Positions 3 to 11,137 of a DNA stretch of 11,977 nucleotides are shown piece after piece (the stretch's first letter is position 1; each line of letters begins with the position of its first letter). Both the position numbers and the translations under genes were made by a program. The notes under the pieces were generated by a model. The model ran no database searches. It was not told the origin of the DNA and saw nothing but the letters and a program-made list of their open reading frames with translations. Source of the stretch: Promethearchaeota archaeon (GTDB taxonomy: Archaea > Asgardarchaeota > Lokiarchaeia > Sigynarchaeales > SOKP01); assembly GCA_030620005.1 (NCBI GenBank), contig JAUXAJ010000157.1, forward strand, positions 1 through 11,977. Reading direction: 5' to 3'.

Positions 3-1049
3 TTCGAAAAACTCGAGAAGGAAATAAAGCCTTCAAAAATTTTAGGTCAAAAGTATTTAGAAAAATTCCATGATTTTCTATTGGATCAAATAGAAATAAA
101 TCACACGGTATTATCAAGAGAACAGAATTATAACGATGAAAAAGCCATAGAAGAATTTAAAAATATTATTGTTCAAAATTTAGATTCATTTTTCAAGAAG
201 ATAACATTGACTATTGGTGATTTAGTTTCATTTGCAGAAATAGAAATGGAAAAAGAGTCCAAGGTTATTAAAACTCATATTGATAATTTTAAAAAGTTTT
301 CAAGCGAGATACATTATTTATTAGGTTATATTTTGAGATATAGTACAATAAATAGATATTTAAAAGATGAGCCTGAAAACGAGATATCAGATCCTGTGTC
401 ATTCGCCAATAAATTTCATCGTTTCTTGGAAAAACGAATCGGTGGAATTAATTTTGCTTGGAAATCTTACATATTTGATTGGATCAATGATTATTCAAAA
501 AATTTTTTCAAATTGGACATACCAAACTATTGGACTATAAAAGAAATTTATGTTGATTTTCTGGGTTATTTGGGAGAAAGAGAATCAAATGAACAAAATC
601 CCGAACGATTTTTAGAATTCATTGATAATTACAATAAACGATTACCGGATGGTGAAGAAAGGGAACATTTACTCGATTTTTATAATCAATATAAATTTTG
701 TATTGAAATAAAGGACGAGATTCCAAATTTTATTAGACAAATAATTGAAAACGAATTAACTTCTCTGAAGTTTCTATTAGAAGAATTAATACCGATTAAT
801 TTTCTAAATATTGAAGGAGAAGATGATCTTTATAATTACATCAAGGAATCTGCATTAATGTATTTTTCTAAATTAATTCCCCGACCGCATTCCTTGATTT
901 TAAAGCACAGCATATCCAATGAAGAAAGAGAACTTTTTAATGGCTCTCTTTTTCATGTGATTAATTTCGATTTTAAGGACGATAAATTAATATTTGACTT
1001 AGCAGATAATTTTAAACAAGTTTATCGGGAGTGGTTAAAAGAATTATGA
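3..1049 (+). CDS. Unknown protein, 5' end cut by window edge
   Basis: The reading frame is open to the window edge with no in-frame ATG before a TTG at 81. The gene therefore most likely starts outside the window, and about 348 codons are visible. I do not recognise the family. The product is soluble and predicted mostly helical, rich in Lys, Glu, Ile and Phe, with no signal peptide, membrane segment, Cys pair or nucleotide-binding motif. Its stop overlaps the ATG of the next gene (ATGA at 1046-1049), so the two are probably translationally coupled and expressed from one operon. Codon use matches the neighbours. TTG at 81 remains a possible but unattractive start, because the 26 upstream codons read as ordinary coding sequence. 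Confidence 0.75.
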   Translation, partial: FEKLEKEIKPSKILGQKYLEKFHDFLLDQIEINHTVLSREQNYNDEKAIEEFKNIIVQNLDSFFKKITLTIGDLVSFAEIEMEKESKVIKTHIDNFKKFSSEIHYLLGYILRYSTINRYLKDEPENEISDPVSFANKFHRFLEKRIGGINFAWKSYIFDWINDYSKNFFKLDIPNYWTIKEIYVDFLGYLGERESNEQNPERFLEFIDNYNKRLPDGEEREHLLDFYNQYKFCIEIKDEIPNFIRQIIENELTSLKFLLEELIPINFLNIEGEDDLYNYIKESALMYFSKLIPRPHSLILKHSISNEERELFNGSLFHVINFDFKDDKLIFDLADNFKQVYREWLKEL

Positions 1050-1822
1050 TAAATGGAATAAGTGGAATAAAAAGAAAAACAACTGCTATAGAAAGTACAT
1101 ATAGGTTCTTTCAAACTGTTGATTTAATTATTTCTCACTTTAAAAGAGATGCTGATAAGCAAAAAATTTATGAGCTAGTAAACCACGAAACAACACTTAA
1201 TGGTTTTTTAATTGCTACAGCCGCTATTCATATATATCATAATTTAGGAATTAGAGTTCAAGATGATTTTGAATCTGATCAAATGACTGTAGATTCAACA
1301 AGAACATTAGAACTTAAAGAGAAAAAAATTCTAAAAGAAGAAGTAGAATCTCTGTTAAAAAACTCTTTTAATTTGGAAATTGAAATGATAAATATAATTA
1401 TTAATTTAGAAAATAAATTTATCTCATTTTTGATTGAAGGGAGAAAATCTAAACTTAAAAATTTTCAAAAAGAACAAAAATTAAAAGAGATTGAAGATCA
1501 AATCGAGTATGAATTATTACAAATCATTAGAAATTATCCTCCATTTTGTTTTTACGATTTAATTGGAGACTTAATTGGACTTACTAATGTGACAAAAATG
1601 GAAATATTAGAAGAAAGTTCTGGTTTAAAGGATTTGTCTATAGAAATCGAAAAAAAACTAGAAAAAGAAGATAAGGAAGATAAATACATTGAACTGTCTA
1701 CTTTAAATCGATTGATTACTAAGCTTCAAAAAAATTTTGAGTTTAAGTCCTATAAAGAGTTACAAATTCAGGCAATGCCTGTTAGAATGATAAAAAAAAA
1801 AAATAATAGGATACGAAATTGA
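1046..1822 (+). CDS. Unknown helical protein, N-terminal part of a probably frameshifted gene
   Basis: I chose ATG 1046 over the in-frame GTG at 1031 because it gives the ATGA stop/start overlap with the upstream gene. This ORF encodes about 258 residues and is not recognised. The sequence is helical, with a charged segment near residues 95-160 that could form coiled coil and a Lys/Glu stretch near residues 205-220. The last codons (K-K-K-N-N-R-I-R-N) read through a run of 12 A at 1792-1803 and then stop. The next frame opens at the same run and stays open for 1.6 kb. The likeliest reading is one gene of about 800 codons ending at 3455. The break may be an assembly error, a real mutation, or slippage or programmed frameshifting. 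Confidence 0.7.
   Translation: MINGISGIKRKTTAIESTYRFFQTVDLIISHFKRDADKQKIYELVNHETTLNGFLIATAAIHIYHNLGIRVQDDFESDQMTVDSTRTLELKEKKILKEEVESLLKNSFNLEIEMINIIINLENKFISFLIEGRKSKLKNFQKEQKLKEIEDQIEYELLQIIRNYPPFCFYDLIGDLIGLTNVTKMEILEESSGLKDLSIEIEKKLEKEDKEDKYIELSTLNRLITKLQKNFEFKSYKELQIQAMPVRMIKKKNNRIRN
1792..1803 (+). repeat. A12 homopolymer at the frame break
   Basis: Twelve consecutive A bases form the point where the upstream frame (ending 1822) and the downstream frame (open from 1794) exchange. Losing one A, adding two, or a +1 shift in this run would join the two ORFs. Long A runs are known sites of polymerase slippage and of sequencing error. Confidence 0.9.
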
Positions 1823-1910
1823 TCGTTTTCCTATTTCTGTTCCCGGTTTAAATGCATTTCTAAAAGCAAATAATTTAAAAAAGGATTTAATAGCAAAAAT
1901 TAAAAACGCG

Positions 1911-3455
1911 TTGAACGAGAAAATTAACTACGATCAATTTGAACACCAAATGTTGGCTTATTTAAAAATTGAGATAATAAAACAGTTAAAAACTAATCCT
2001 AATGACTTCATATATTTTTTGCAAAAATTGAACGAAACTAATTTCAGCGAAACTATATACATATTAAACAAATACGGAATTCATAATATTTTACATTTGT
2101 TAAAAGCTGACGAGGAGCTTTCAAAAAAAATTAATCAAAATATGATCAGATATAATATTAAAAAATTTGATATAATGTCGCTAAATGATCCTAACAAAGA
2201 TTTAATATACTTAGCTAAAAAAGCTATATGCAATTTAGATTTTCCAATTTTAAAAGATGCAATGAAAACTAACCATGATTCATCCGAATTCAATTTGTTT
2301 AATTTATTAAATCAAGATAGTATTGAAGCTAAAGAGTCATGGAAATTAATAGAAAAAGAAATAAATTATTCAAAAAGCGATTTTAGGGAGTTTGTTAGAA
2401 AAAAGGAAATCATTGATAAAATTTTCCTAAGAGGATTAAAAATAAGGGATTATTCTCAAATATTATTATTAATGAATTTCGAAACAATTTTAGAAAATAT
2501 TGTAAAGAACATATTTTTTTATCTTTTATCAAAAATCTTACGTCAATTAGGAAGAATTATTGAGATTTACCTTAAAGTTACTAATGAGAGAGGTCTATCC
2601 CTATTAGCTCTAAAAAAAATGCAAGGCACGACAGATTCCGAGGAATGGGTTAACATTAAATTAGAAGAACTCCTAATCGAACGAATAAACAAAAGACAAA
2701 ATGAATTAGTAACTGTTTTTAATGCGATGACTCAACCCTTTCTAGTAAACGGATTTATTTTTGCAAGGTTTAAAAATATTGCTTTAAAAACGGGTATATC
2801 GGAAATGAAAAACACTACAAGTCCAGTTTACGAGGGTATATTACCGTTGAAATTACAGGCGGAGTACATTTCACCCGTTTCTTATTGTATTGCCTATGAT
2901 TTAGTTAAGAGATTCGAAAAATATGTGGAATTGCACAAAATAAAAATAGAAAAAATTATTGAATCGAAAGAAAAAGTTAAAGAAGAAAAAAAGAAGGAAT
3001 TGCGCAAAAAGCAGGAAGGAAGCACATTTAATTGGATTGAAAGAAGGATTACATCTGCTTTAATGAGAATAAATAGCCCAGGTATTAATCCAACACTCCT
3101 ATACTGGCAGAAAAAAGATACTAAAAGCGCAACAGACAATATTAAATTACATAGTGAGTTACAAGGAAATACAGTAGAATTATTTAGCGAATTTTTTATT
3201 TTTTGCATAGAAAAAATTAAATCTTTTTCCCAAGAGTTTAAATTACCTGATAATGATAAAATAATTCAAATGGTCAATAAAATAACTGAAAAAACGTTAA
3301 AGGAACGATTAGGTCGTGTTCCTACTTCCACAGATGTGCAAAACATGATTGAAGGAGAAAGATATGAAATTGCAAAACAAATTGCTAAAAGAATTGGAAA
3401 ATTCTTAGATAAAGTTTTATATATAAAATTTAAAAATAAACGAAAAAATAATTAA
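1911..3455 (+). CDS. Unknown protein, C-terminal part of the same interrupted gene
   Basis: The nominal TTG start is at 1911, but the frame is open back to 1794, and those 39 codons look like real protein (…GYEIDRFPISVPGLNAFLK…). No ATG or GTG lies in that stretch, and the first in-frame ATG is about 13 codons inside the ORF. A free-standing start is therefore weak, and fusion to the ORF ending at 1822 is preferred. The visible part is 514 residues and is not recognised. A central block around residues 265-335 (near NAMTQPFLVNGFIFARF and LPLKLQAEYISPVSYC) looks the most conserved-like and least charged. It is followed by a strongly charged Lys/Glu helix near 343-370. There is no membrane segment or known catalytic motif. 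It ends the operon; T-rich sequence with TTTTTTTAT follows at about 3471. Confidence 0.7.
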   Translation: MNEKINYDQFEHQMLAYLKIEIIKQLKTNPNDFIYFLQKLNETNFSETIYILNKYGIHNILHLLKADEELSKKINQNMIRYNIKKFDIMSLNDPNKDLIYLAKKAICNLDFPILKDAMKTNHDSSEFNLFNLLNQDSIEAKESWKLIEKEINYSKSDFREFVRKKEIIDKIFLRGLKIRDYSQILLLMNFETILENIVKNIFFYLLSKILRQLGRIIEIYLKVTNERGLSLLALKKMQGTTDSEEWVNIKLEELLIERINKRQNELVTVFNAMTQPFLVNGFIFARFKNIALKTGISEMKNTTSPVYEGILPLKLQAEYISPVSYCIAYDLVKRFEKYVELHKIKIEKIIESKEKVKEEKKKELRKKQEGSTFNWIERRITSALMRINSPGINPTLLYWQKKDTKSATDNIKLHSELQGNTVELFSEFFIFCIEKIKSFSQEFKLPDNDKIIQMVNKITEKTLKERLGRVPTSTDVQNMIEGERYEIAKQIAKRIGKFLDKVLYIKFKNKRKNN

Positions 3456-3859: not shown

Positions 3860-4588
3860 TTAAATTATCTGTTTAATCAACTCTTTTCCAGTAATGAATT
3901 TACTATATTGGCTCTTGGAAATCAATTCTAGTATCAAATTTGGACTATACTCCCACGTTTTGTCTTTATTGAAAGAGATACATTTAAGATTTTTGATGTT
4001 AAGTAAGGAGCGGGCGAGAAGACCGTAAACAGCCACTTGTGGTAGTGAAATTAAAAATTTTCCTTCTGGTTTATAATCAATTACCTTAACATTATTATTA
4101 TCAACTTGAATTAAATCAATATGACCTGTAACATAGTTATTATTTTTCACTTTTTTCCATATTGGAACTTCTATAGCCACAGAGTCCTTATCCTTTATTA
4201 ATATATTCTTAAGAATTGGTTCGTGTCCTGGTTTTTTATTAATATGGTTTTCCTTGTAGTTATCATAAACTCTTCGAGCATAATTAGATAATTTTGAGTC
4301 CGTATCAAATTTTGTGATTTTCCCCGAACGAATTAATTGCTTACTAAAGCTTTTAACAAATGAACTTTTTATACCTCTAAGCTTAAATTGTGAAACTCTA
4401 GGAAAGCGTTTATCATTAAACAAGTCATTCGGGATTGATCCATCATGGATTTTTTTAAAATATTTTCTTAATTGTACAATATCTTGTCGACAACCATTAA
4501 GCTGCTTTAGTTTTTCCTCATGATGAATATAATTCCAATTAAAAGAATAACAAATTCTTTGATGGTAAAAATCGCGATGTCTTAACAT
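3860..4588 (-). CDS. PD-(D/E)XK (RecB/Cas4-like) nuclease
   Basis: The gene encodes 242 residues from an ATG. The second half carries the ordered motifs of the PD-(D/E)XK nuclease fold. These are Glu140 in VAIEVPIW, the strand GHIDLI with Asp158, then VIDYKP with Asp171 and Lys173, and QVAVYGLLAR with Gln184 and Tyr188, which fits the QxxxY helix of RecB-like members. All metal-binding and catalytic positions look intact, so it should be an active Mg-dependent DNase. The N-terminal 120 residues are basic and helical and match nothing I know. The four-Cys iron-sulphur signature of Cas4 is absent, and no CRISPR array, helicase or cas gene is in the window. It is therefore better read as a stand-alone RecB-family nuclease, in repair, defence or a mobile element. 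It is monocistronic here and converges on the small membrane protein. Confidence 0.7.
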   Translation of the reverse strand: MLRHRDFYHQRICYSFNWNYIHHEEKLKQLNGCRQDIVQLRKYFKKIHDGSIPNDLFNDKRFPRVSQFKLRGIKSSFVKSFSKQLIRSGKITKFDTDSKLSNYARRVYDNYKENHINKKPGHEPILKNILIKDKDSVAIEVPIWKKVKNNNYVTGHIDLIQVDNNNVKVIDYKPEGKFLISLPQVAVYGLLARSLLNIKNLKCISFNKDKTWEYSPNLILELISKSQYSKFITGKELIKQII

Positions 4589-4850
4589 AAAACATGTGCT
4601 CTGATGGTATTATGATTAGTAATCTCAAATTATTTAATGACACTAAATTAATAAATTGATTGTATTAATGAATTATTAATTTTTACCGAGTTTATTAATT
4701 CTATTTACCGACATAAATCAATATTACTGATATTAACTTGATTATTATTTAATATGGACATAAAAATTATATATATATCGAAAATGAATTTTTAATATTC
4801 TATTAGATTTTAAGTTTTCTAGTTATTTTGAAGAATAGAGAAATTAATAG
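4589..4850. other. Intergenic AT-rich spacer, no gene seen
   Basis: About 260 bases separate the nuclease start from the 3' end of the tRNA-Arg fragment. The spacer is strongly AT-rich and includes an (AT)n stretch near 4770-4778. It must hold the nuclease promoter on the minus strand, but several TATA-like words compete and I cannot choose one. I see no ORF, RNA fold or repeat worth naming. Confidence 0.6.
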
Positions 4851-4935
4851 CGGACCCGGCAGGATTCGAACCTGCGACCCTTGGATGTCTTCTAGAGTAA
4901 GAATTATTAGAAGTCCAATGCCCTATCCATTCTAG
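4851..4935 (-). tRNA. tRNA-Arg(UCU), 3' part of a split or giant-intron tRNA, with anticodon-loop intron
   Basis: On the minus strand, the D-loop end and everything 3' of it are complete. These are GGGC (22-25), A26, stem TTGGA/TCCAA with loop CTTCTAA (anticodon UCU), a 5-base variable loop, T-arm GCAGG-TTCGAAT-CCTGC, acceptor strand CGGGTCC and discriminator G, with no encoded CCA. The anticodon loop is broken at the canonical 37/38 site by a 21-base intron (4887-4907) containing TTCT/AGAA complementarity. No strand able to pair with CGGGTCC lies next to it. The sequence just upstream (TTGCCTAG at 4962-4969, or CTAG at 4932-4935) can complete the D-arm but has no acceptor 5' strand. The matching 5' piece is at 6845-6855. 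The mature junction is inferred as GTAGC + CTAG-AATGGATA-GGGC. Confidence 0.75.
4887..4907 (-). other. Canonical 37/38 tRNA intron
   Basis: Removing these 21 bases restores the 7-base anticodon loop CTTCTAA between perfect 5-bp stems. TTCT and AGAA inside it can form the inner helix expected of an archaeal bulge-helix-bulge intron. The exact ends can slide by one base. Confidence 0.75.
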
Positions 4936-4952
4936 TTTAAAATTTTTATTAA

Positions 4953-5219
4953 TTCAAATTACTAGGCAAGCAAGGATTCAAGATTCAAGATTCAAGAATC
5001 ATTGTTTATTGCGCGTATAATACATGCCTGACTGGCTTTCTTTCTTTTTTGGGAATCGTGTTCTCGAGCATTGGGATCTATTTAATTGCATTTAACAAGT
5101 CAATCTTGAGATCGAGTTATAAACCCGCATCGTTTTTCATATTAGAAGCGATACTATTGGTTGTATTCGGAGTCACGCCATCGTTAAAAATCATCTGGTA
5201 TTTTCCTTTATTTCCTTGA
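4953..5219 (+). CDS. Possible small membrane protein or gene remnant (non-ATG start)
   Basis: A frame open from 4953 to the TGA at 5217-5219 encodes two convincing hydrophobic helices, near 5028-5090 and 5135-5185. A basic linker separates them (FNKSILRSSYKPASF), and the end is aromatic (IIWYFPLFP). There is no ATG. TTG at 5049 would give about 56 residues, and a GTATAATA box at 5015-5022 sits about 30 bases before it. Codons before about 5000 run into the tRNA fragment and are probably not coding. The stretch is visibly less AT-rich than its surroundings. It may be a short gene with a TTG start, or the tail of a membrane protein gene that lost its beginning. No family is recognised. Confidence 0.35.
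   Translation, partial: FKLLGKQGFKIQDSRIIVYCAYNTCLTGFLSFLGIVFSSIGIYLIAFNKSILRSSYKPASFFILEAILLVVFGVTPSLKIIWYFPLFP
4975..4995 (+). repeat. Three tandem GATTCAA units
   Basis: Three perfect 7-base copies of GATTCAA stand side by side, followed by GAATC. On the minus strand they read TTGAATC and lie in the leader of the split tRNA-Arg 3' part. The word TCTTGAA that they create is complementary to TTCAAGA in the trailer of the 5' part (minus strand, about 6813-6819), so they may help the two RNAs or the two intron ends to pair. Confidence 0.75.
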
Positions 5220-5288
5220 ATCGCGCGATCGTGAAAAAATGTAAAAAAACTGAGAGCGTGCATAAATTTAAATGGAGAACAAGAATTG

Positions 5289-5367
5289 ATTTCGTATCAC
5301 GAAATTAACTAATGGTTTTTTGGAAATTATTTTGTATTACGAAATACCTCATTTTGTATTACGAAAT
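5289..5367. promoter_or_regulatory. Three 17-bp operator-like palindromes upstream of the endonuclease
   Basis: ATTTCGTATCACGAAAT lies at 5289-5305, with perfect 7-bp arms around a 3-base centre. ATTTTGTATTACGAAAT lies at 5329-5345 and again, identical, at 5351-5367. Copy starts are 40 and 22 bases apart, close to whole turns of B-DNA. All lie between the small membrane ORF and the endonuclease promoter. This is the layout of a dimeric repressor's operators. The cognate regulator is not identified in the window. Confidence 0.7.
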
Positions 5368-5420
5368 AAAAAGAAGAAAAAAGTTCGATAAATTTATAAT
5401 GCAAGATTTAAAAACGGATA

Positions 5421-5429
5421 GTTTAAATA
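5421..5429 (+). promoter_or_regulatory. TATA box for the endonuclease gene
   Basis: TTTAAATAC fits the archaeal TATA consensus and lies about 50 bases downstream of the last palindrome. Transcription would start near 5450, leaving a leader of about 60 bases that contains an A13 run (5480-5492) and the ribosome-binding candidate AGGATGG just before the ATG at 5510. A second candidate is TTTATAAT near 5394. Confidence 0.5.
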
Positions 5430-5509
5430 CTCACGTTAAGACAACAGAGTTAACAGTAATTTAACAAAAAATATCTAACAAAAAAAAAAAAATAGGATGG
5501 AAAAATGAA

Positions 5510-6373
5510 ATGGAAGTAAAGGATGAGATGATTAAGGAATTTAAACATGCCAGAAGAAAAGGTAAAAGTCTAAAGGAGTGTCAGAAAGGCATTGAAGCGC
5601 TTTTTTTAGAAAAAAATGAAAATCTCGCAGAATTGGTGGGCATTCTTTTAGGAGACGGACACATCACATTAGATTACGAGAAAAGTAGTTATAAAGTTGA
5701 AATAGCGTTAAACTCTGATGAAAAGCTTTATGTAGACCATGTATACAACTTTTTAGTTAACAAATTTAACGTGAAACCGAGAGTCTATCAGAGAAGTACT
5801 GAGAAAACAATTGTGATTGATATAGGACAAAAACCTATTGTTGAAGCCCTTATTTCGGGGGGTTTGATGTCAGGAAATAAAATTAAAAACCAAGTACATG
5901 TTCCACGATGGATATGTAAAAGTGCAAGATGGATTCTAAGTCACGAAAATATATGGAACATGAACTACCGTCCGCTCGTAATTCGTTGTTTAAAAGGATT
6001 AATGGATACAGATGGTAGTATTTACGTGACTCATAATGCACGCACGAATTATACATATATTGGCATTAAATTTACTAATGGTTCAAGACCTCTCGTTGAG
6101 GATTTTAAAAACATGTGTGAATCAATTGATATTGAAACTTCAAATATATACGAATATGTTGGTACGACAAAACAGGGCAAGGAATATAGGGGATATAGCA
6201 CAAGCACGGGATCGAAAGCAAAAGTGTCTAAATTTTTAGAAATAGTCATGCCAATGAAATGGGAGGTTAAAAAACCAGAGATCATGGGCAAATTAAGAAA
6301 TCACGGATTGACACTGGAAAACATGTTTTCATACCAGAGACAACATCGAAATACTCCCTTTAACGATTTTTAA
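5510..6373 (+). CDS. LAGLIDADG homing endonuclease (two-motif, monomeric)
   Basis: The gene encodes 287 residues with two LAGLIDADG helices, LVGILLGDG at 42-50 (Asp49) and CLKGLMDTDGS at 160-170 (Asp166 or Asp168). Each is followed by a beta-rich DNA-binding half. Both acidic residues are kept and no frame damage is visible, so the enzyme is probably active: it would cut one long asymmetric DNA site. ATG 5510 is preferred because AGGATGG precedes it and the two nearby upstream ATGs stop at once. The gene is not inside a protein frame, so it is not an intein. It lies antisense within the 1.9-kb interval between the two parts of a tRNA-Arg gene, next to a second tRNA-Arg. If that interval is an intron, this is its resident endonuclease. 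Otherwise it is free-standing. WhiA-type or other LAGLIDADG regulators are less likely, since no helix-turn-helix region is seen. Confidence 0.88.
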   Translation: MEVKDEMIKEFKHARRKGKSLKECQKGIEALFLEKNENLAELVGILLGDGHITLDYEKSSYKVEIALNSDEKLYVDHVYNFLVNKFNVKPRVYQRSTEKTIVIDIGQKPIVEALISGGLMSGNKIKNQVHVPRWICKSARWILSHENIWNMNYRPLVIRCLKGLMDTDGSIYVTHNARTNYTYIGIKFTNGSRPLVEDFKNMCESIDIETSNIYEYVGTTKQGKEYRGYSTSTGSKAKVSKFLEIVMPMKWEVKKPEIMGKLRNHGLTLENMFSYQRQHRNTPFNDF

Positions 6374-6376
6374 TCA

Positions 6377-6388
6377 TTTTTTTTTTTT
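6377..6388 (+). terminator. T12 tract after the endonuclease gene
   Basis: Twelve T bases start 3 bases after the stop codon region, which is the usual form of archaeal intrinsic terminator. It mirrors the A13 run in the leader of the same gene. Confidence 0.6.
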
Positions 6389-6578
6389 CCATTTTCTATT
6401 TTAATTTTATCTTGCAATGAATTAATTGCATAGTAAGATCCGAAGAGCATCTAAACGTGCTTGATTGAAAATTACAAGGAATGAATAATTCTTTTGAAGT
6501 GAGAATATTAACTTTATTTGAGAAGAATATCAGCGATCTCTTGTAAGAAAGGATTAAAAATTGAAGGGAAGGAAATAG
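6389..6578. other. Spacer between endonuclease and tRNA-Arg, nothing recognised
   Basis: The spacer is AT-rich with a short palindrome-like GCAATGAATTAATTGC near 6415-6430. The minus strand just past the tRNA has no long T tract. I see no ORF with coding character and no RNA gene. Confidence 0.5.
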
Positions 6579-6684
6579 CGGATCTGGCAGGAATCTCGTT
6601 ATGGATATAGTTTATTCCAAGATTTCGAACCTGCGATCTTTGGATTAGAAGTCCAACGCCATATCCATGCTTGGCTACAGATCC
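6579..6684 (-). tRNA. tRNA-Arg(UCU) with a T-loop intron
   Basis: This is a complete cloverleaf on the minus strand. The acceptor GGATCTG/CAGATCC pairs perfectly, TA is at 8-9, and the D-arm is GCCA-AGCATGGATA-TGGC with G15 available for archaeosine. The anticodon arm is TTGGA-CTTCTAA-TCCAA (UCU), and the T-stem GCAGG/CCTGC and discriminator G follow; CCA is not encoded. The T-loop is expanded to 38 bases. Removing 31 bases at about 6593-6623 restores TTCGAAT. The intron begins ATCT and ends AGAT, and also holds TGGA/TCCA, so it can fold back on itself. The exact splice sites can slide. It is a close paralogue of the split tRNA-Arg that flanks it on both sides, and it shares a 19-bp upstream element with the 5' part of that tRNA. 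Confidence 0.88.
6593..6623 (-). other. Non-canonical T-loop tRNA intron
   Basis: This 31-base insert lies in the T-loop of tRNA-Arg(UCU). Complementary ends (ATCT/AGAT) and an inner TGGA/TCCA pair are visible. Introns at this place need the broad-specificity (heterotetrameric or loop-extended) type of archaeal splicing endonuclease. Confidence 0.75.
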
Positions 6685-6726
6685 AATGGTAAATTATAAT
6701 TAATCTTATTAATATAATTTATCAAC

Positions 6727-6745
6727 AAAAATCTTTAAATTTTAT
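6727..6745 (-). repeat. 19-bp element upstream of tRNA-Arg (copy 1)
   Basis: ATAAAATTTAAAGATTTTT on the minus strand ends 42 bases before the first base of the intact tRNA-Arg. An exact second copy is at 6899-6917, 43 bases before the 5' part of the split tRNA. It is a shared promoter or activator element from a duplicated tRNA promoter. Confidence 0.75.
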
Positions 6746-6844
6746 CATATTTCTTGTCAGTTATAAAACAAAAAATAATGAAAATTTATAACCAAAATAA
6801 TATTAAAACGTCTTGAAGAGTGGCACGGAATAGATATTTAAACT

Positions 6845-6855
6845 GCTACGAGTCC
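6845..6855 (-). tRNA. tRNA-Arg(UCU), 5' part of the split or giant-intron tRNA
   Basis: Minus strand GGACTCG-TA-GC. GGACTCG pairs with all seven bases of the orphan acceptor strand CGGGTCC at 4852-4858 (six Watson-Crick pairs and one U-G). TA is the usual 8-9, and GC starts the D-stem that GGGC of the 3' part closes. The paralogous intact tRNA begins GGATCTGTAGC. A TATA box ATATAAAT (6874-6881) is centred about 22 bases upstream, and a 19-bp element is shared with the intact tRNA promoter. After GC the sequence diverges from tRNA: AGTTTAAA follows, complementary to TTTAAACT at the start of the 3' part. The gene piece is short, so the call rests on the combination of these points. Confidence 0.65.
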
Positions 6856-6978: not shown

Positions 6979-7092
6979 ATGAACTTAAATTTTTGTTATC
7001 TTTTAACAAATATAGTCATGAGTATTATTTTTCTATGGCAAATAATTATAAAAAAGAAATCATTAGGTGCGTATACGAATAGTGGAAGATAA
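6979..7092 (+). CDS. Possible 37-aa single-helix membrane peptide
   Basis: An ATG opens a 37-codon ORF with one hydrophobic helix at about residues 5-24, ending in Trp-Gln. Three Lys and a short polar tail (SLGAYTNSGR) follow, which would place the C-terminus in the cytoplasm. A good TATA box at leaderless distance supports expression. The ORF overlaps the first codons of the coiled-coil gene in another frame: the latter's possible starts are at 7067 (GTG) and 7082 (GTG), and this stop is at 7090-7092. Reading into the coiled-coil gene could be coupled to it. It may instead be an untranslated leader, or the real N-terminal anchor of the coiled-coil protein if the frame is broken here, though no homopolymer explains a shift. 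Confidence 0.35.
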   Translation: MNLNFCYLLTNIVMSIIFLWQIIIKKKSLGAYTNSGR

Positions 7093-7894
7093 AAGTAAAC
7101 GATATGAACAAGATCTAAGGTCTGTTATTGATATTTTAAACGAAAGAATCAAATCTATAGAAAAAGAAAAAATAAATTTCGAGCAAAAATTAAAAATTAA
7201 AGAAAATAAAATTGAAAAATTGCTTCAAGATAAAGAAACCTTATTGAAAGAAAAATCTGAAGTTTTAGAAGTAAAGAACGAAATCTTGCAGACCATATCT
7301 AAACAAGAATTAGAACTCCAACAAAGGGACCAAAAATATTCGGAATTACAGTTAAAATTTAAGCAATCTAGTGGTGAATTGTTAAGCAAATCAATGCAAA
7401 TAGAAAAATTGATTAAAAAGGTATATCGTATTGAGAGTCTAAGAGACAGTGAAAAACAGGAGATGGAAGGAGGAATTATATCGCTAGATAACACGGGAGT
7501 GATTTCTAACATGGAAGGAATAATTAACTATATTAAAGAGACATTACCTCAAGGAAAAAGCAGTATTAGACTGGTTTTGCCTGAAATTGAAGATTTGAAT
7601 AAATTTGAATTAACAAGCATTATTAAGGAAAGACCGTCCAAAGTAAGAATAAATATTGCTATAAAAATAGATAATCCAGATGAGAATCCCCTTGTACAAG
7701 AAATGAAAGAATATTCTCAATTAATAATGTATAATGATATAAAGTTTATTGCTTTAAATGTAGATTCCTCTAATTTTATTATAGGTATATTTAGAGGTGA
7801 CGAGGTAATTGGAATATATACGGATATTTTAGAACTCATTGATCTGTTTAAATCAACAATAATGGAACCATTCATAAAAGGAAGAAAAATATAA
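7067..7894 (+). CDS. Coiled-coil protein with TrmB/PLD-like C-terminal domain
   Basis: The gene encodes about 275 residues from GTG 7067; GTG 7082 is an alternative, and an in-frame TAG at 7064 rules out an earlier start. Residues about 5-130 are a continuous coiled coil rich in Glu, Lys, Leu and Gln with heptad-like spacing. The C-terminal half, about 150-270, alternates strands and helices (SIRLVLPEIEDL, KVRINIAIKI, FIALNVDSSNFIIGIF, DEVIGIYTDILELIDLF). It resembles the phospholipase-D-like regulatory domain found in TrmB-type archaeal proteins, which lacks nuclease HKD motifs; none is present here. No DNA-binding helix-turn-helix is seen, so a sensor or scaffold role is likelier than a repressor. 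That family call is by resemblance only. The gene converges on trm5. Confidence 0.6.
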   Translation: MRIRIVEDKSKRYEQDLRSVIDILNERIKSIEKEKINFEQKLKIKENKIEKLLQDKETLLKEKSEVLEVKNEILQTISKQELELQQRDQKYSELQLKFKQSSGELLSKSMQIEKLIKKVYRIESLRDSEKQEMEGGIISLDNTGVISNMEGIINYIKETLPQGKSSIRLVLPEIEDLNKFELTSIIKERPSKVRINIAIKIDNPDENPLVQEMKEYSQLIMYNDIKFIALNVDSSNFIIGIFRGDEVIGIYTDILELIDLFKSTIMEPFIKGRKI

Positions 7895-9071: not shown

Positions 9072-9503
9072 TTATCGGTTTACTTCATTTATTTTGAATA
9101 TTAAGCAAAATCTTTTTCCACGAACCCTTAATTTATTGATAAGGTTTCGATTTAATTCGCTTGAGGATTTCGTGCATTTGATTAAAATCGTTCTATCGCA
9201 TATAAAATCACTTTTACGAAAAACTATATCTTTTCTATCTGTTAGTGATAATTTTTTATTTCCATAACCGTAAAAAGAGTCAATCTCATCGTCTACCTTT
9301 ATTATTACATTAATTTTTTTTCCGCTCTTTATTTCCTTTTTTAATTCAGGATTGAGATCGTAACAACCTTTGGATGCACAAATTCCTAAAATGCAATTTC
9401 CTTCTTTTGTAAGGCGCTTATCTTTAGTTATTTCAATTGTGGTATCATGAGTACAAAGAATATTTTCATGGCTAGTTGCGTAGATTTTATCTAAACTTTT
9501 CAA
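9072..9503 (-). CDS. DUF371 family protein
   Basis: The gene encodes 143 residues and matches the archaeal DUF371 pattern: HENILCTHDTTIEITKD near the start, LTKEGNCILGICASKG at about 31-46, then YGYGNKKLSLTDRKDIVFRKSDFICDRTILIKCTKSSSELNR. The role of the family is not established. Conserved polar residues and a compact alpha/beta pattern are the main features. The start codon is TTG, and TTGA overlaps the stop of tgtA (9500-9503). No alternative ATG would keep the conserved N-terminal segment. With tgtA upstream and trm5 1 base downstream, it belongs to a tightly coupled tRNA-modification operon. A role in tRNA modification or handling is inferred from this context only. Confidence 0.85.
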   Translation of the reverse strand: MKSLDKIYATSHENILCTHDTTIEITKDKRLTKEGNCILGICASKGCYDLNPELKKEIKSGKKINVIIKVDDEIDSFYGYGNKKLSLTDRKDIVFRKSDFICDRTILIKCTKSSSELNRNLINKLRVRGKRFCLIFKINEVNR

Positions 9504-11137
9504 ATATCATTACCGTCTTTAAAAAATTGTAATATATCTTCGATACTATTAAAAATTGAGAGATTGTAATTAAATTTTGATTTCAGATGTGAAAATACAT
9601 TTGCCATTGAATTATTATATAAGATAATGATTTCGTTATTTTGATTAACAATTTTTTCCGGAATTAGAGCTCCACATTTTACATATTGGCTAATGTGAGT
9701 CTTGAAGAACAATTTTACTTTTTTTAAAGCGTTCCAAAATAAAATATCATTTGTTCCAAATGATTTTATTGACTCATACTGAAACATGCCTAATTCCAAA
9801 GGTATTATCCCATAAAACTCTGAATAAAATACCACATGCATTTCCATCCTTGGAATCAATATGTTATTATTTAAATATTCCAACCAATTCTTAATATTGT
9901 AGGAATAATCTCCTTTTTCTTCTAATTCTGGTAAAATAATCAAATACTTTACATCTTTAGGAACGCGATAATTATCAATTATCTTCTTCGCGTATCTATA
10001 TAATAGTGGTCGATGAATACTTTCAGAAGAAGAATATAACCTACCGTGTTTTTTGTATATTTTTTCGTGTGATTCAAAAAAATTTTTGTTTTTCTGAACC
10101 ACTTTAACAGCCTCCACAAGAGCAGGATGATTTCTAATTCTTTGCTCTACAAGTTCCCATAAATTACCTTCTCTTATAGCTTGTCGTACCGTTCTTAATT
10201 CGGAAAATGAGAGATATAAATTATGTCTGGCCACTAGCTCAATTCGTAGCTTTTCTTCAAATTTTTTCACTTCTTTTGGAGTGTATTTACTACACACAGG
10301 GCAATGGCATGGGAATTCCTCTAATTCTTTGAGGTTTTTTGTTCCCGTAGATAAAGTAAAGTAACGATTTTCTCTAGCATATAATACATATGCGGCGGAA
10401 TCCATCAAGTCGCATCCACACGCAACTGCCAATGAAAAGAATTGTGGCAATCCTAATCCAAACATGTGTATTGGTTTGTTAGGGATAATGTTTTTCTTTA
10501 CGGTTAATAATATTTGAATTGCTAAATAAAATTTATATTTTAAAAAAGCTTTTACCAAGCCTCCAATTGCGTAGATATCAAAATCTAATTTGCTCATTTC
10601 AATAGCGCTCGTTTTTAATAAATCAAAAAATTTCCCCCCATGTATCGGTCCAAACCAATGACAATTTTCGTTAGTCCTTCTTTTGATATTGTCTTTTGCC
10701 CTATTTATAGTTATTATTACTTTTTCCTTAGCTTTATCGTATGAATCATCGAGTTGTACTGGAATATCGAGAATTACAGGAAAATCAGAACAAATATCTT
10801 CTTGAAATTTTTCAATTGTGTCAGCATTGATTCCAATACGATTTTTATACATGTATTGCTGAAAGGCGCCTGAATCCGTCGCAATCAATCCATCAAAATC
10901 TAAATGATGGTGTATACCCTCTTTTAAAACTTTTTCTCGTAAAGTTTCATTTTGATACATGATATAAGCGTTTGTAAATAGACATTGGGCTCCAATATTC
11001 TTTAAACTTGATGCAGAAATAATGTTTTTAATCGGATGGACTACTGGGAAAAAACAAGGTGTGATTACTTCTTTCCGATTCACTATTAGCTTACCTATTC
11101 TCCCCAATGCGTCTAGATCTACAATTTCAAAATTCAA
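9500..11137 (-). CDS. tgtA: Archaeosine tRNA-guanine transglycosylase
   Basis: The enzyme exchanges G15 in the tRNA D-loop for preQ0, the first step to archaeosine. It has 545 residues. The catalytic TIM barrel (1-310) has TDSGAFQ with Asp88, LDIPVQLD, WFGPIHGGKF, AIGGLV and DLMDSAAY with the likely nucleophile Asp246. The zinc site is Cys277, Cys279, Cys282 and His305. After a helical linker, residues about 375-480 hold an ArcS/TgtA2-like segment with FYGIIPLEL. The final ~75-residue PUA domain usual in archaeal TgtA is not seen, and the protein is shorter than the usual 580-650. The start is TTG, forced by an in-frame TAA directly before it. It lies 33 bases after the AK6 gene and overlaps DUF371 by 4 bases. 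Confidence 0.92.
   Translation of the reverse strand: MNFEIVDLDALGRIGKLIVNRKEVITPCFFPVVHPIKNIISASSLKNIGAQCLFTNAYIMYQNETLREKVLKEGIHHHLDFDGLIATDSGAFQQYMYKNRIGINADTIEKFQEDICSDFPVILDIPVQLDDSYDKAKEKVIITINRAKDNIKRRTNENCHWFGPIHGGKFFDLLKTSAIEMSKLDFDIYAIGGLVKAFLKYKFYLAIQILLTVKKNIIPNKPIHMFGLGLPQFFSLAVACGCDLMDSAAYVLYARENRYFTLSTGTKNLKELEEFPCHCPVCSKYTPKEVKKFEEKLRIELVARHNLYLSFSELRTVRQAIREGNLWELVEQRIRNHPALVEAVKVVQKNKNFFESHEKIYKKHGRLYSSSESIHRPLLYRYAKKIIDNYRVPKDVKYLIILPELEEKGDYSYNIKNWLEYLNNNILIPRMEMHVVFYSEFYGIIPLELGMFQYESIKSFGTNDILFWNALKKVKLFFKTHISQYVKCGALIPEKIVNQNNEIIILYNNSMANVFSHLKSKFNYNLSIFNSIEDILQFFKDGNDI

What the first reader, a model, noticed from the sequence alone, without database searches (positions are those of the whole stretch)
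4851..6855. A tRNA-Arg(UCU) in two pieces 1.9 kb apart: split tRNA or giant intron with nested genes
The 3' part (4851-4935) is a perfect tRNA from the D-loop on but lacks its acceptor 5' strand. GGACTCGTAGC at 6845-6855, same strand, pairs fully with the orphan CGGGTCC and completes the D-stem, and it has its own TATA box. AGTTTAAA after the 5' piece is complementary to TTTAAACT before the 3' piece. Further out, TTCAAGA matches TCTTGAA in the GATTCAA repeats, in the antiparallel order needed for a duplex. Between them lie a complete tRNA-Arg(UCU), an antisense LAGLIDADG gene and a small membrane ORF. Two models fit. One is a trans-spliced split tRNA, known in Nanoarchaeum and Caldivirga. The other is one gene with an intron of about 1.9 kb holding another tRNA. 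The junction (GTAGC + CTAG, or GTA + GCCTAG with a 30-base D-loop intron at 4932-4961) is not settled.
Basis: partly seen in the sequence, partly recalled or inferred. Interest (0 to 1): 0.88.

Follow-up and report, generated by a model that had tools for sequence, protein, structure and literature searches.

The report
tRNA gene broken by selfish nuclease
In a Lokiarchaeon, an arginine tRNA gene lies in two pieces because a selfish DNA-cutting gene with a spare tRNA seems to sit inside it; this looks like a breakage scar, not a working two-part tRNA, and it shows how archaeal tRNA genes may come to be broken apart.

Summary
The two pieces are real and come from one ancestral gene. Of 53 related loci, 43 hold one contiguous tRNA-Arg(UCU) with a fully paired acceptor, 40 of them beside the same neighbour gene; the rejoined pieces match the best of these at 70 of 75 bases. 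Splicing is not supported. The three ordinary introns here have a full central bulge-helix-bulge; the break has none. The promoter motif that precedes the 5' piece and the intact tRNA-Arg is absent at the 3' piece. The intact tRNA-Arg(UCU) between the pieces can do the job. The insert carries an intact LAGLIDADG gene. Relatives of that gene lie between a complete tRNA and a partial second copy of the same tRNA in three more genomes: tRNA-Met in G010, tRNA-Tyr in G039 and G125. Uninterrupted sites exist in relatives for Met and for the G039 Tyr. Best reading: a mobile homing-endonuclease element that breaks tRNA genes and leaves displaced fragments. The closest precedent is the Caldiarchaeum tRNA-Thr fragment (PMC3293823). 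New variant of a known kind. A functional split tRNA is unlikely; only RNA data can exclude it.

The parts
6845..6855 (-). Displaced 5' end of the ancestral tRNA-Arg(UCU) ('ARG1'), positions 1-11, GGACTCGTAGC
   Evidence: 13 contiguous tRNA-Arg genes of relatives begin GGACTCG, e.g. L070, L078, L099
6901..6917 (-). Promoter-like motif ATAAAATTTAAAGATTT upstream of the 5' piece
   Evidence: exact match; also upstream of the orphan 5' piece in L067
6580..6684 (-). Complete tRNA-Arg(UCU) ('ARG2'), acceptor GGATCTG/CAGATCC, with one T-loop intron
   Evidence: BHB test; all 21 tested cloverleaf pairs form after splicing
6593..6623 (-). T-loop intron of ARG2 (31 nt)
   Evidence: central helix 4/4, outer helix 5; similar intron in L067
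6729..6745 (-). Promoter-like motif ATAAAATTTAAAGATTT upstream of ARG2
   Evidence: exact match
5510..6373 (+). Free-standing LAGLIDADG homing endonuclease gene (287 aa), antisense to the tRNAs
   Evidence: Pfam PF14528 7.2e-11, above cut-off; both acidic LAGLIDADG motifs (GDG, DTDG) invariant in a 6-row alignment
4851..4967 (-). Displaced 3' part of ARG1, from position 10 to the discriminator base, acceptor strand CGGGTCC
   Evidence: all 21 tested pairs of the rejoined tRNA form
4930..4959 (-). D-loop intron inside the 3' piece (30 nt)
   Evidence: central helix CTAG/CTAG 4/4, inner helix 6, outer helix 1; counterpart at the same place in L067
4887..4907 (-). Canonical anticodon-loop (37/38) intron inside the 3' piece (21 nt)
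   Evidence: central helix 4/4, outer helix 5
5289..5367 (+). Three palindromic copies of ATTTYGTATYACGAAAT (5289-5305, 5329-5345, 5351-5367) upstream of the endonuclease gene; possible operator
   Evidence: read from the sequence; function not tested
3860..4588 (-). PD-(D/E)XK-like gene (Pfam match just below cut-off): conserved neighbour on the 3' side of the tRNA in relatives
7067..7894 (+). Coiled-coil ORF: neighbour on the 5' side, also between TYW2 and tRNA-Arg in L069 and L096, so not part of the insert

Best explanation
A small mobile element of about 1.9 kb sits in the D-arm of the resident tRNA-Arg(UCU) gene. It consists of a LAGLIDADG homing endonuclease gene and a complete second tRNA-Arg(UCU). 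The resident gene is left as an 11-nt 5' fragment with its promoter and a 3' fragment from position 10 on. Shown: the ancestral contiguous gene at this place; the intact second tRNA; the intact endonuclease gene; relatives of the endonuclease between a complete tRNA and a partial second copy of that tRNA in three other genomes; and uninterrupted sites in relatives for two of those. Inferred: the endonuclease cuts tRNA genes, and repair from an element-bearing donor brings in both the endonuclease gene and the donor's tRNA sequence. The translated tRNA-Arg(UCU) would then be the intact copy, and the fragments would be displaced relics that decay with time.
For: Contiguous tRNA-Arg in 43 of 53 neighbour loci by script (45 by eye), 40 of the 43 within 1.2 kb of the PD-(D/E)XK gene. 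Rejoined pieces 70/75 identical to L105. Intact copy with a BHB intron. HEG intact with both acidic motifs. G010/L023: tRNA-Thr, 14-nt 5' fragment of tRNA-Met, HEG antisense, complete tRNA-Met. Contiguous Thr-Met in 10 of 25 fetched loci. HEG-deleted remnants in L215 and L216, L215 aligning at 72/87 and 105/117 to the two ends of the G010 element. Decayed displaced Met fragment in L208. G039/L203: complete tRNA-Tyr, HEG, displaced 3' fragment, repeat score 116 vs null maximum 39; uninterrupted site with both neighbours kept in L264. G125/L252: displaced 5' half of tRNA-Tyr, HEG antisense, complete tRNA-Tyr, score 49 vs 35. In the Rfam scans, 6 of 35 HEG loci have a tRNA within 200 bp.
Against: In the window the complete tRNA lies on the 5' side of the HEG and both ends of the old gene persist; none of the three other cases has both ends. 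No uninterrupted site exists in a close relative of the window, and its own genome is not held. The 3' piece shows no decay: all 21 tested pairs form. L186 and L187, the best HEG matches, have no tRNA found nearby. Of the 35 scanned HEG loci, 27 showed no tRNA in the Rfam scans (one of them, L203, does have one that Rfam missed), and in 2 of the other 8 it is more than 1 kb away. G029 carries a 751-aa ORF of no known family in that place instead of a HEG. The L023 repeat alone is at the edge of its null (33 vs maximum 32); it rests on position and the uninterrupted sites. Non-tRNA repeats also exceed the null in L189, L205 and L031, so a repeat across a HEG is not by itself telling. One duplex energy is at the 5th percentile. 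Endonuclease activity and cutting site were not tested.
Confidence: 0.8

Rival explanations
1. A functional split tRNA: the 5' and 3' pieces are transcribed apart and trans-spliced to a second tRNA-Arg(UCU).
For: Both pieces are undamaged: all 21 tested pairs form and the introns in the 3' piece keep full central BHB helices. The 5' piece has a promoter motif. An identical GGACTCGTAGC with the same motif is kept in G029. The duplex of trailer and D-intron leader is at the 5th percentile of shuffles.
Against: No BHB at the junction in any of four alignments. No promoter motif at the 3' piece. Complementarities near chance. An intact isoacceptor is present. In G029 the 5' piece has no partner in the held assembly. 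Relatives of the HEG lie beside such fragments in other tRNA genes.
Confidence: 0.08
2. One gene with a giant cis intron of about 1.9 kb that holds another tRNA and an antisense gene.
For: Both ends lie on one strand in the right order and are flanked by the ancestral neighbours.
Against: No BHB at the junction; no group I or II intron match at E up to 1; it would need read-through of a second tRNA gene with its own promoter motif.
Confidence: 0.03
3. Two separate relics: a truncated 5' copy and a truncated 3' copy left by different duplications and deletions of tandem tRNA-Arg genes, with the HEG a later arrival.
For: G029 has two truncated 5' copies in front of a complete gene and no HEG in that place. 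ARG1 and ARG2 have the promoter motif at nearly the same distance.
Against: The two pieces meet with only a 2-nt overlap (positions 10-11), as one break would give. Relatives of the HEG lie between partial and complete copies of the same tRNA elsewhere.
Confidence: 0.12
4. Assembly artefact joining two strains or two loci.
For: No whole genome is held for the window, so the layout cannot be checked; ARG1 and ARG2 share short repeats.
Against: Both outer neighbours are in the ancestral order; the exact repeats shared by ARG1 and ARG2 in the alignment are under 20 nt; G029 independently shows the orphan 5' piece.
Confidence: 0.03

Closest known systems
tRNA-Thr(GGU) disruption in Caldiarchaeum subterraneum (Sugahara et al. 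2012, PMC3293823; abstract, passages and sections 5-6 read)
   Same: A 5' tRNA fragment, a 1,868-bp insertion with an 813-bp ORF and a complete tRNA with an extra D-arm intron (24/25); read there as mobile-element insertion that scatters tRNA fragments.
   Different: There the ORF was called DNA-binding or recombination-related by a classifier and the insertion was linked to pNOB8-type plasmids by composition. Here the gene is a LAGLIDADG endonuclease, both ends of the old gene remain, and similar scars are seen in Met and Tyr genes. Whether ORF b is related to this HEG was not tested.
Phage T4 SegB free-standing homing endonuclease (PMC2988022, passages read)
   Same: A free-standing homing endonuclease whose insertion site lies between tRNA-Arg and tRNA-Ile; the title of a reference listed there says it is required for preferred inheritance of the T4 tRNA gene region.
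   Different: GIY-YIG family, phage, intergenic target; displacement of tRNA halves was not seen in the passages read.
Trans-spliced split tRNAs of archaea, e.g. Nanoarchaeum, Aeropyrum, Staphylothermus (PMC3218864, passages read)
   Same: A tRNA gene in two pieces at different places.
   Different: In the passages the Aeropyrum case has a canonical BHB at the junction, a 14-bp G/C-rich stem and RT-PCR proof; here there is no BHB, an intact isoacceptor is present, and there are no RNA data.
HeimM2 element of Heimdallarchaeum (PMC8813620, passages read)
   Same: An Asgard mobile element with a homing-endonuclease-like gene inserted beside tRNA-Arg(TCT).
   Different: 8 kb, between the 16S rRNA and tRNA genes; no displaced tRNA halves in the passages read.

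Membership tests
Trans-spliced split tRNA | Bulge-helix-bulge at the exon junction | tested here: not met
   central helix at most 2/4, outer helix 0 in four alignments; three controls 4/4
Trans-spliced split tRNA | Long stable duplex between 5' trailer and 3' leader | tested here: inconclusive
   longest matches near chance; energy at the 71st percentile for one leader, 5th percentile for the other
Trans-spliced split tRNA | Each half has its own promoter | tested here: inconclusive
   exact motif upstream of the 5' piece and ARG2 only; other promoter types not excluded
Trans-spliced split tRNA | Joined mature tRNA in RNA | not testable with these tools
   no RNA data
Group I or II intron | Conserved catalytic RNA fold | tested here: not met
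   no match at E up to 1
Free-standing LAGLIDADG homing endonuclease gene | LAGLIDADG domain with both acidic motifs, outside an intein | tested here: met
   287-aa ORF of its own
Free-standing LAGLIDADG homing endonuclease gene | Cuts the uninterrupted target allele | not testable with these tools
   needs biochemistry
tRNA-disrupting mobile element (Caldiarchaeum type) | Displaced tRNA fragment plus complete tRNA flanking an insert | tested here: met
   window; L023, L203, L252
tRNA-disrupting mobile element (Caldiarchaeum type) | Uninterrupted site in relatives | tested here: inconclusive
   met for tRNA-Met and the G039 tRNA-Tyr; for tRNA-Arg only in distant relatives; not sought for G125
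SSV/pNOB8 integrase element | Tyrosine integrase gene beside the tRNA | tested here: not met
   no integrase among the 10 window proteins scanned (the small ORFs were not all scanned)

The most novel reading that the evidence does not exclude
The element is a natural 'cut and rescue' drive: its endonuclease destroys an essential tRNA gene by cutting a conserved arm, and the element survives because it supplies a working, cut-resistant tRNA of the same kind (in the window one with an altered D-stem pair and a T-loop intron). Repeated rounds would turn tRNA genes into pieces and introns, a route to the split tRNAs of other archaea.
Probability: 0.2. Interest if true: 0.8.

Novelty: new variant of a known kind. 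Interest (0 to 1): 0.55.

Why it matters
How archaeal tRNA genes come to be split or filled with introns is an open question, and insertion of mobile elements was proposed from one natural population (PMC3293823). Here a candidate agent can be named, a LAGLIDADG endonuclease gene, and the same kind of scar is seen in tRNA-Arg, tRNA-Met and tRNA-Tyr genes of Asgard archaea. For two of these, intact alleles are known in relatives. That makes the idea directly testable with purified enzyme and cloned tRNA alleles. It is also a warning: complementary tRNA pieces in a genome are not by themselves a split tRNA.

Tried and rejected
Trans-splicing and giant intron: tested by an explicit bulge-helix-bulge scan with three positive controls, shuffled complementarity, duplex energies and Rfam; rejected as not supported, not disproved. 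A partner 3' piece in G029: none found by two DNA patterns; the tRNA list was not read through for it, and the assembly may be incomplete. Decayed 3' piece before PDDEXK in L067: score 26 against a shuffle mean of 23 and maximum of 36, so none. Relatives of the HEG or of the G029 ORF in viral contigs: none confirmed. The G029 751-aa ORF: Pfam hits only below cut-off, no NCBIfam or PHROG match, no homologue but itself (where only the candidates sharing most words were scored); single-sequence AlphaFold model useless, mean pLDDT 34. It looks GIY-YIG-like to me from memory only. Displaced copies beside L024, L188, L189, L201 and L205: none convincing (5' ends at up to 3 mismatches; 3' ends of four of them at up to 2, one chance-like hit in L205), and no tRNA-like repeat across the HEG where the flanks allowed the test (L201 and L026 could not be tested; several HEG spans in that script were approximate). 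Solved structures by sequence: only a chance hit. Literature: (open-licence PMC only); none of the listed titles and abstract beginnings describes a LAGLIDADG gene inside Asgard tRNA genes. Correction made on checking: my earlier count of 45 of 53 contiguous tRNA-Arg loci was by eye; a script that demands a fully paired acceptor gives 43 (it leaves out L068 and L112, which have an acceptor mismatch).
Full report
What is in the sequence. The window is Lokiarchaeal: the tRNA-guanine transglycosylase at 9500-11137 is 53-65% identical (best segment) to 18 Lokiarchaeal loci. On the minus strand the order is TYW2-like gene (9070-7925), a coiled-coil ORF on the other strand (7067-7894), the 5' piece GGACTCGTAGC (6855-6845), a complete tRNA-Arg(UCU) (6684-6580), an antisense LAGLIDADG gene (5510-6373), the 3' piece (4967-4851) and a PD-(D/E)XK-like gene (4588-3860; Pfam match just below cut-off). 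I call the broken gene ARG1 and the complete one ARG2.

Anatomy. ARG2 has one intron, in the T-loop (6623-6593). The 3' piece of ARG1 has a D-loop intron (4959-4930) and a canonical anticodon-loop intron (4907-4887). A scan for the archaeal bulge-helix-bulge (3-nt bulges cut after the second base, 4-bp central helix; rule from memory, consistent with these introns) gives 4 of 4 central pairs for all three; the outer helix is 5 pairs for two of them and 1 for the D-loop intron, which has an inner helix of 6. After splicing, both ARG2 and the rejoined ARG1 form all 21 tested cloverleaf pairs. The break overlaps by two bases (GC at positions 10-11).

The pieces come from one gene. I fetched the stretch around the PD-(D/E)XK orthologue from 53 genomes of the family (56 of 65 genomes had some match). 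A script that demands a fully paired acceptor finds a contiguous tRNA-Arg(UCU), with ordinary introns at most, in 43 of 53. It lies within 1.2 kb of the PD-(D/E)XK gene in 40 of the 43; L067 is 2.7 kb away because of an extra ORF, L079 and L080 are 6.9 kb away. L068 and L112 also have a contiguous gene but with an acceptor mismatch. The other 8 (L077, L083, L084, L085, L087, L094, L097, L111) show none in the stretch fetched; in G002, G009 and G010 it was seen instead in the other loci L002, L009 and L010. Thirteen of the 43 begin GGACTCG, as the window's 5' piece does. The rejoined ARG1 is 70 of 75 identical to L105, the best of 43 compared; ARG2 is 71 of 75 identical to L108, L102 and L092; ARG1 and ARG2 are 64 of 75 identical to each other. 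The coiled-coil ORF lies in the same place in L069 and L096, so the extra DNA is what lies between the two pieces.

No sign of splicing. The longest trailer-leader matches, 7 and 8 nt, are reached by 27% and 16% of dinucleotide shuffles. The duplex energy is ordinary for the leader that ends before GCCTAG and at the 5th percentile for the leader inside the D-loop intron; this last value is mildly against my reading. No group I or II intron family matches. The exact motif ATAAAATTTAAAGATTT stands upstream of the 5' piece and of ARG2 but not of the 3' piece; other promoter types are not excluded.

A relative with the same 5' orphan. G029 (L067) is closest by the PD-(D/E)XK gene; L069 of G031 is closer by TYW2 and marginally by the transglycosylase and has one ordinary tRNA-Arg on the opposite strand relative to TYW2. 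G029 has an orphan GGACTCGTAGCC with the same motif upstream, a second orphan GGATCTGTAGCCTAGC, then one complete tRNA-Arg. That gene has a D-loop intron at the place of the window's and a T-loop intron like that of ARG2. It is followed by an antisense 751-aa ORF of unknown family. No 3' piece with CGGGTCC was found in its held assembly. An orphan 5' end can thus persist without a known partner. That it is identical in both genomes could also mean it is kept for a reason. I think it more likely that the ancestral acceptor, still present in many relatives, was broken separately or recently, but this is inference.

The endonuclease family and tRNA genes. Relatives of the window's HEG were sought in 18 genomes, in 83 genomes of the class (24 with a match at 1e-8) and, as a profile, in 227 genomes of the phylum (24 with a match at 1e-25). 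In Rfam scans of the 35 HEG loci have a tRNA in the fetched stretch (L023, L024, L029, L188, L189, L191, L201, L205) and 6 have one within 200 bp (not L029 and L191). Three of the six are the same tRNA-Thr place in three genomes, and many of the 35 lie in long open frames that may be inteins (not checked). With an assumed background of 0.6-1% (my estimate, not measured), 6 of 35 has a probability of about 1e-6 or less, and counting only independent places (4 of 33) about 3e-4 or less. Flank-against-flank alignment on 17 loci, the window included, plus reading of the sequences, shows partial second copies of the same tRNA across the HEG in three other genomes. In G010 (L023) the order is tRNA-Thr, 14 nt of the 5' end of tRNA-Met, HEG antisense, complete tRNA-Met (its repeat score alone, 33 against a null maximum of 32, proves little). 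In G039 (L203) it is complete tRNA-Tyr, HEG, displaced 3' part from the anticodon loop on (score 116, null maximum 39). In G125 (L252) it is displaced 5' half of tRNA-Tyr, HEG antisense, complete tRNA-Tyr (score 49, null maximum 35). Rfam (E up to 0.5) and ARAGORN missed both tRNA-Tyr genes; the Tyr and Met identities are my reading of the anticodons. Two loci, L026 and L201, had too little flank to test. L189, L205 and, slightly, L031 gave repeats above the null that are not tRNA.

Uninterrupted sites and decay. For tRNA-Met, 10 of the 25 fetched loci have tRNA-Thr directly followed by contiguous tRNA-Met (L209-L214, L217, L225, L228, L229). Two loci keep the two ends of the element without the HEG (L215 and L216; measured on L215 as 72/87 and 105/117 identical). 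One shows a decayed displaced Met fragment (L208). For the G039 tRNA-Tyr, L264 has one contiguous, intron-bearing tRNA-Tyr between the same two neighbour genes. No uninterrupted site was sought for G125. The window's own genome is not held, so its uninterrupted allele could not be sought.

How it most likely works. The endonuclease gene is intact, and both acidic LAGLIDADG motifs are invariant in a 6-row alignment (that these are the catalytic acids is from memory). I propose that it cuts tRNA genes and that repair from an element-bearing donor copies in the HEG with donor tRNA sequence. This leaves a complete (donor or rebuilt) tRNA and a displaced piece of the resident one. In the window both ends of the resident gene remain and the complete ARG2 lies inside. 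This fits one insertion of an ARG2-HEG cassette, or two rounds. Cutting, its site and the donor route are inferred, not shown. The fragments in the window are undamaged, which fits a recent event and does not by itself show function.

Known work. A tRNA-Thr 5' fragment 1.8 kb from a complete tRNA-Thr with an extra D-arm intron, with a one-ORF insertion between them, was described in Caldiarchaeum and read as mobile-element disruption (PMC3293823; abstract, passages and sections 5-6 read). Known split tRNAs have a BHB junction and, in the case read, RT-PCR proof (PMC3218864, passages). T4 SegB is a homing endonuclease between tRNA genes (PMC2988022, passages). HeimM2 is an Asgard element with a homing-endonuclease-like gene beside tRNA-Arg(TCT) (PMC8813620, passages). 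My literature searches were limited to open-licence papers.

Verdict. The split-tRNA reading is unlikely (0.08), the giant intron more so (0.03). A homing-endonuclease element that breaks tRNA genes is the best reading (0.8), a new variant of a known kind.

Noticed in passing
window 5289-5367: Three palindromic copies of ATTTYGTATYACGAAAT upstream of the endonuclease gene, possibly operator sites that regulate it.
   Followed up: no
window 1031-3455: Two ORFs (1031-1822 and 1911-3455) seem to correspond to one 803-aa ORF in L005; the break is near a poly-A run at about 1790-1803, so a frameshift or sequencing error is likely.
   Followed up: no
L067 1558-3813: 751-aa ORF in the same antisense place beside tRNA-Arg in G029; no homologue but itself found at the sensitivity; looks GIY-YIG-like to me from memory only.
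   Followed up: partly
L067 4103-3867 (-): Complete tRNA-Arg preceded by two truncated 5' ends (GGACTCGTAGCC and GGATCTGTAGCCTAGC); the complete gene looks like a mosaic of the window's ARG1 (D-arm) and ARG2 (acceptor, T-loop intron).
   Followed up: partly
L205 about 1002-1191: A tRNA ten bases from a HEG seems to have an intron in its acceptor stem besides others; not verified.
   Followed up: no
L208 about 1960-2085: In G037 a complete tRNA-Met lies inverted a few hundred bases downstream of tRNA-Thr and a decayed Met fragment.
   Followed up: no
window 4755-4881: The Rfam HPnc0260 match is below its gathering score and overlaps the tRNA T-arm; probably spurious.
   Followed up: partly
L203, L252, window: ARAGORN and the Rfam tRNA model miss several intron-rich Lokiarchaeal tRNAs, so automatic tRNA counts in such genomes are likely too low.
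   Followed up: partly
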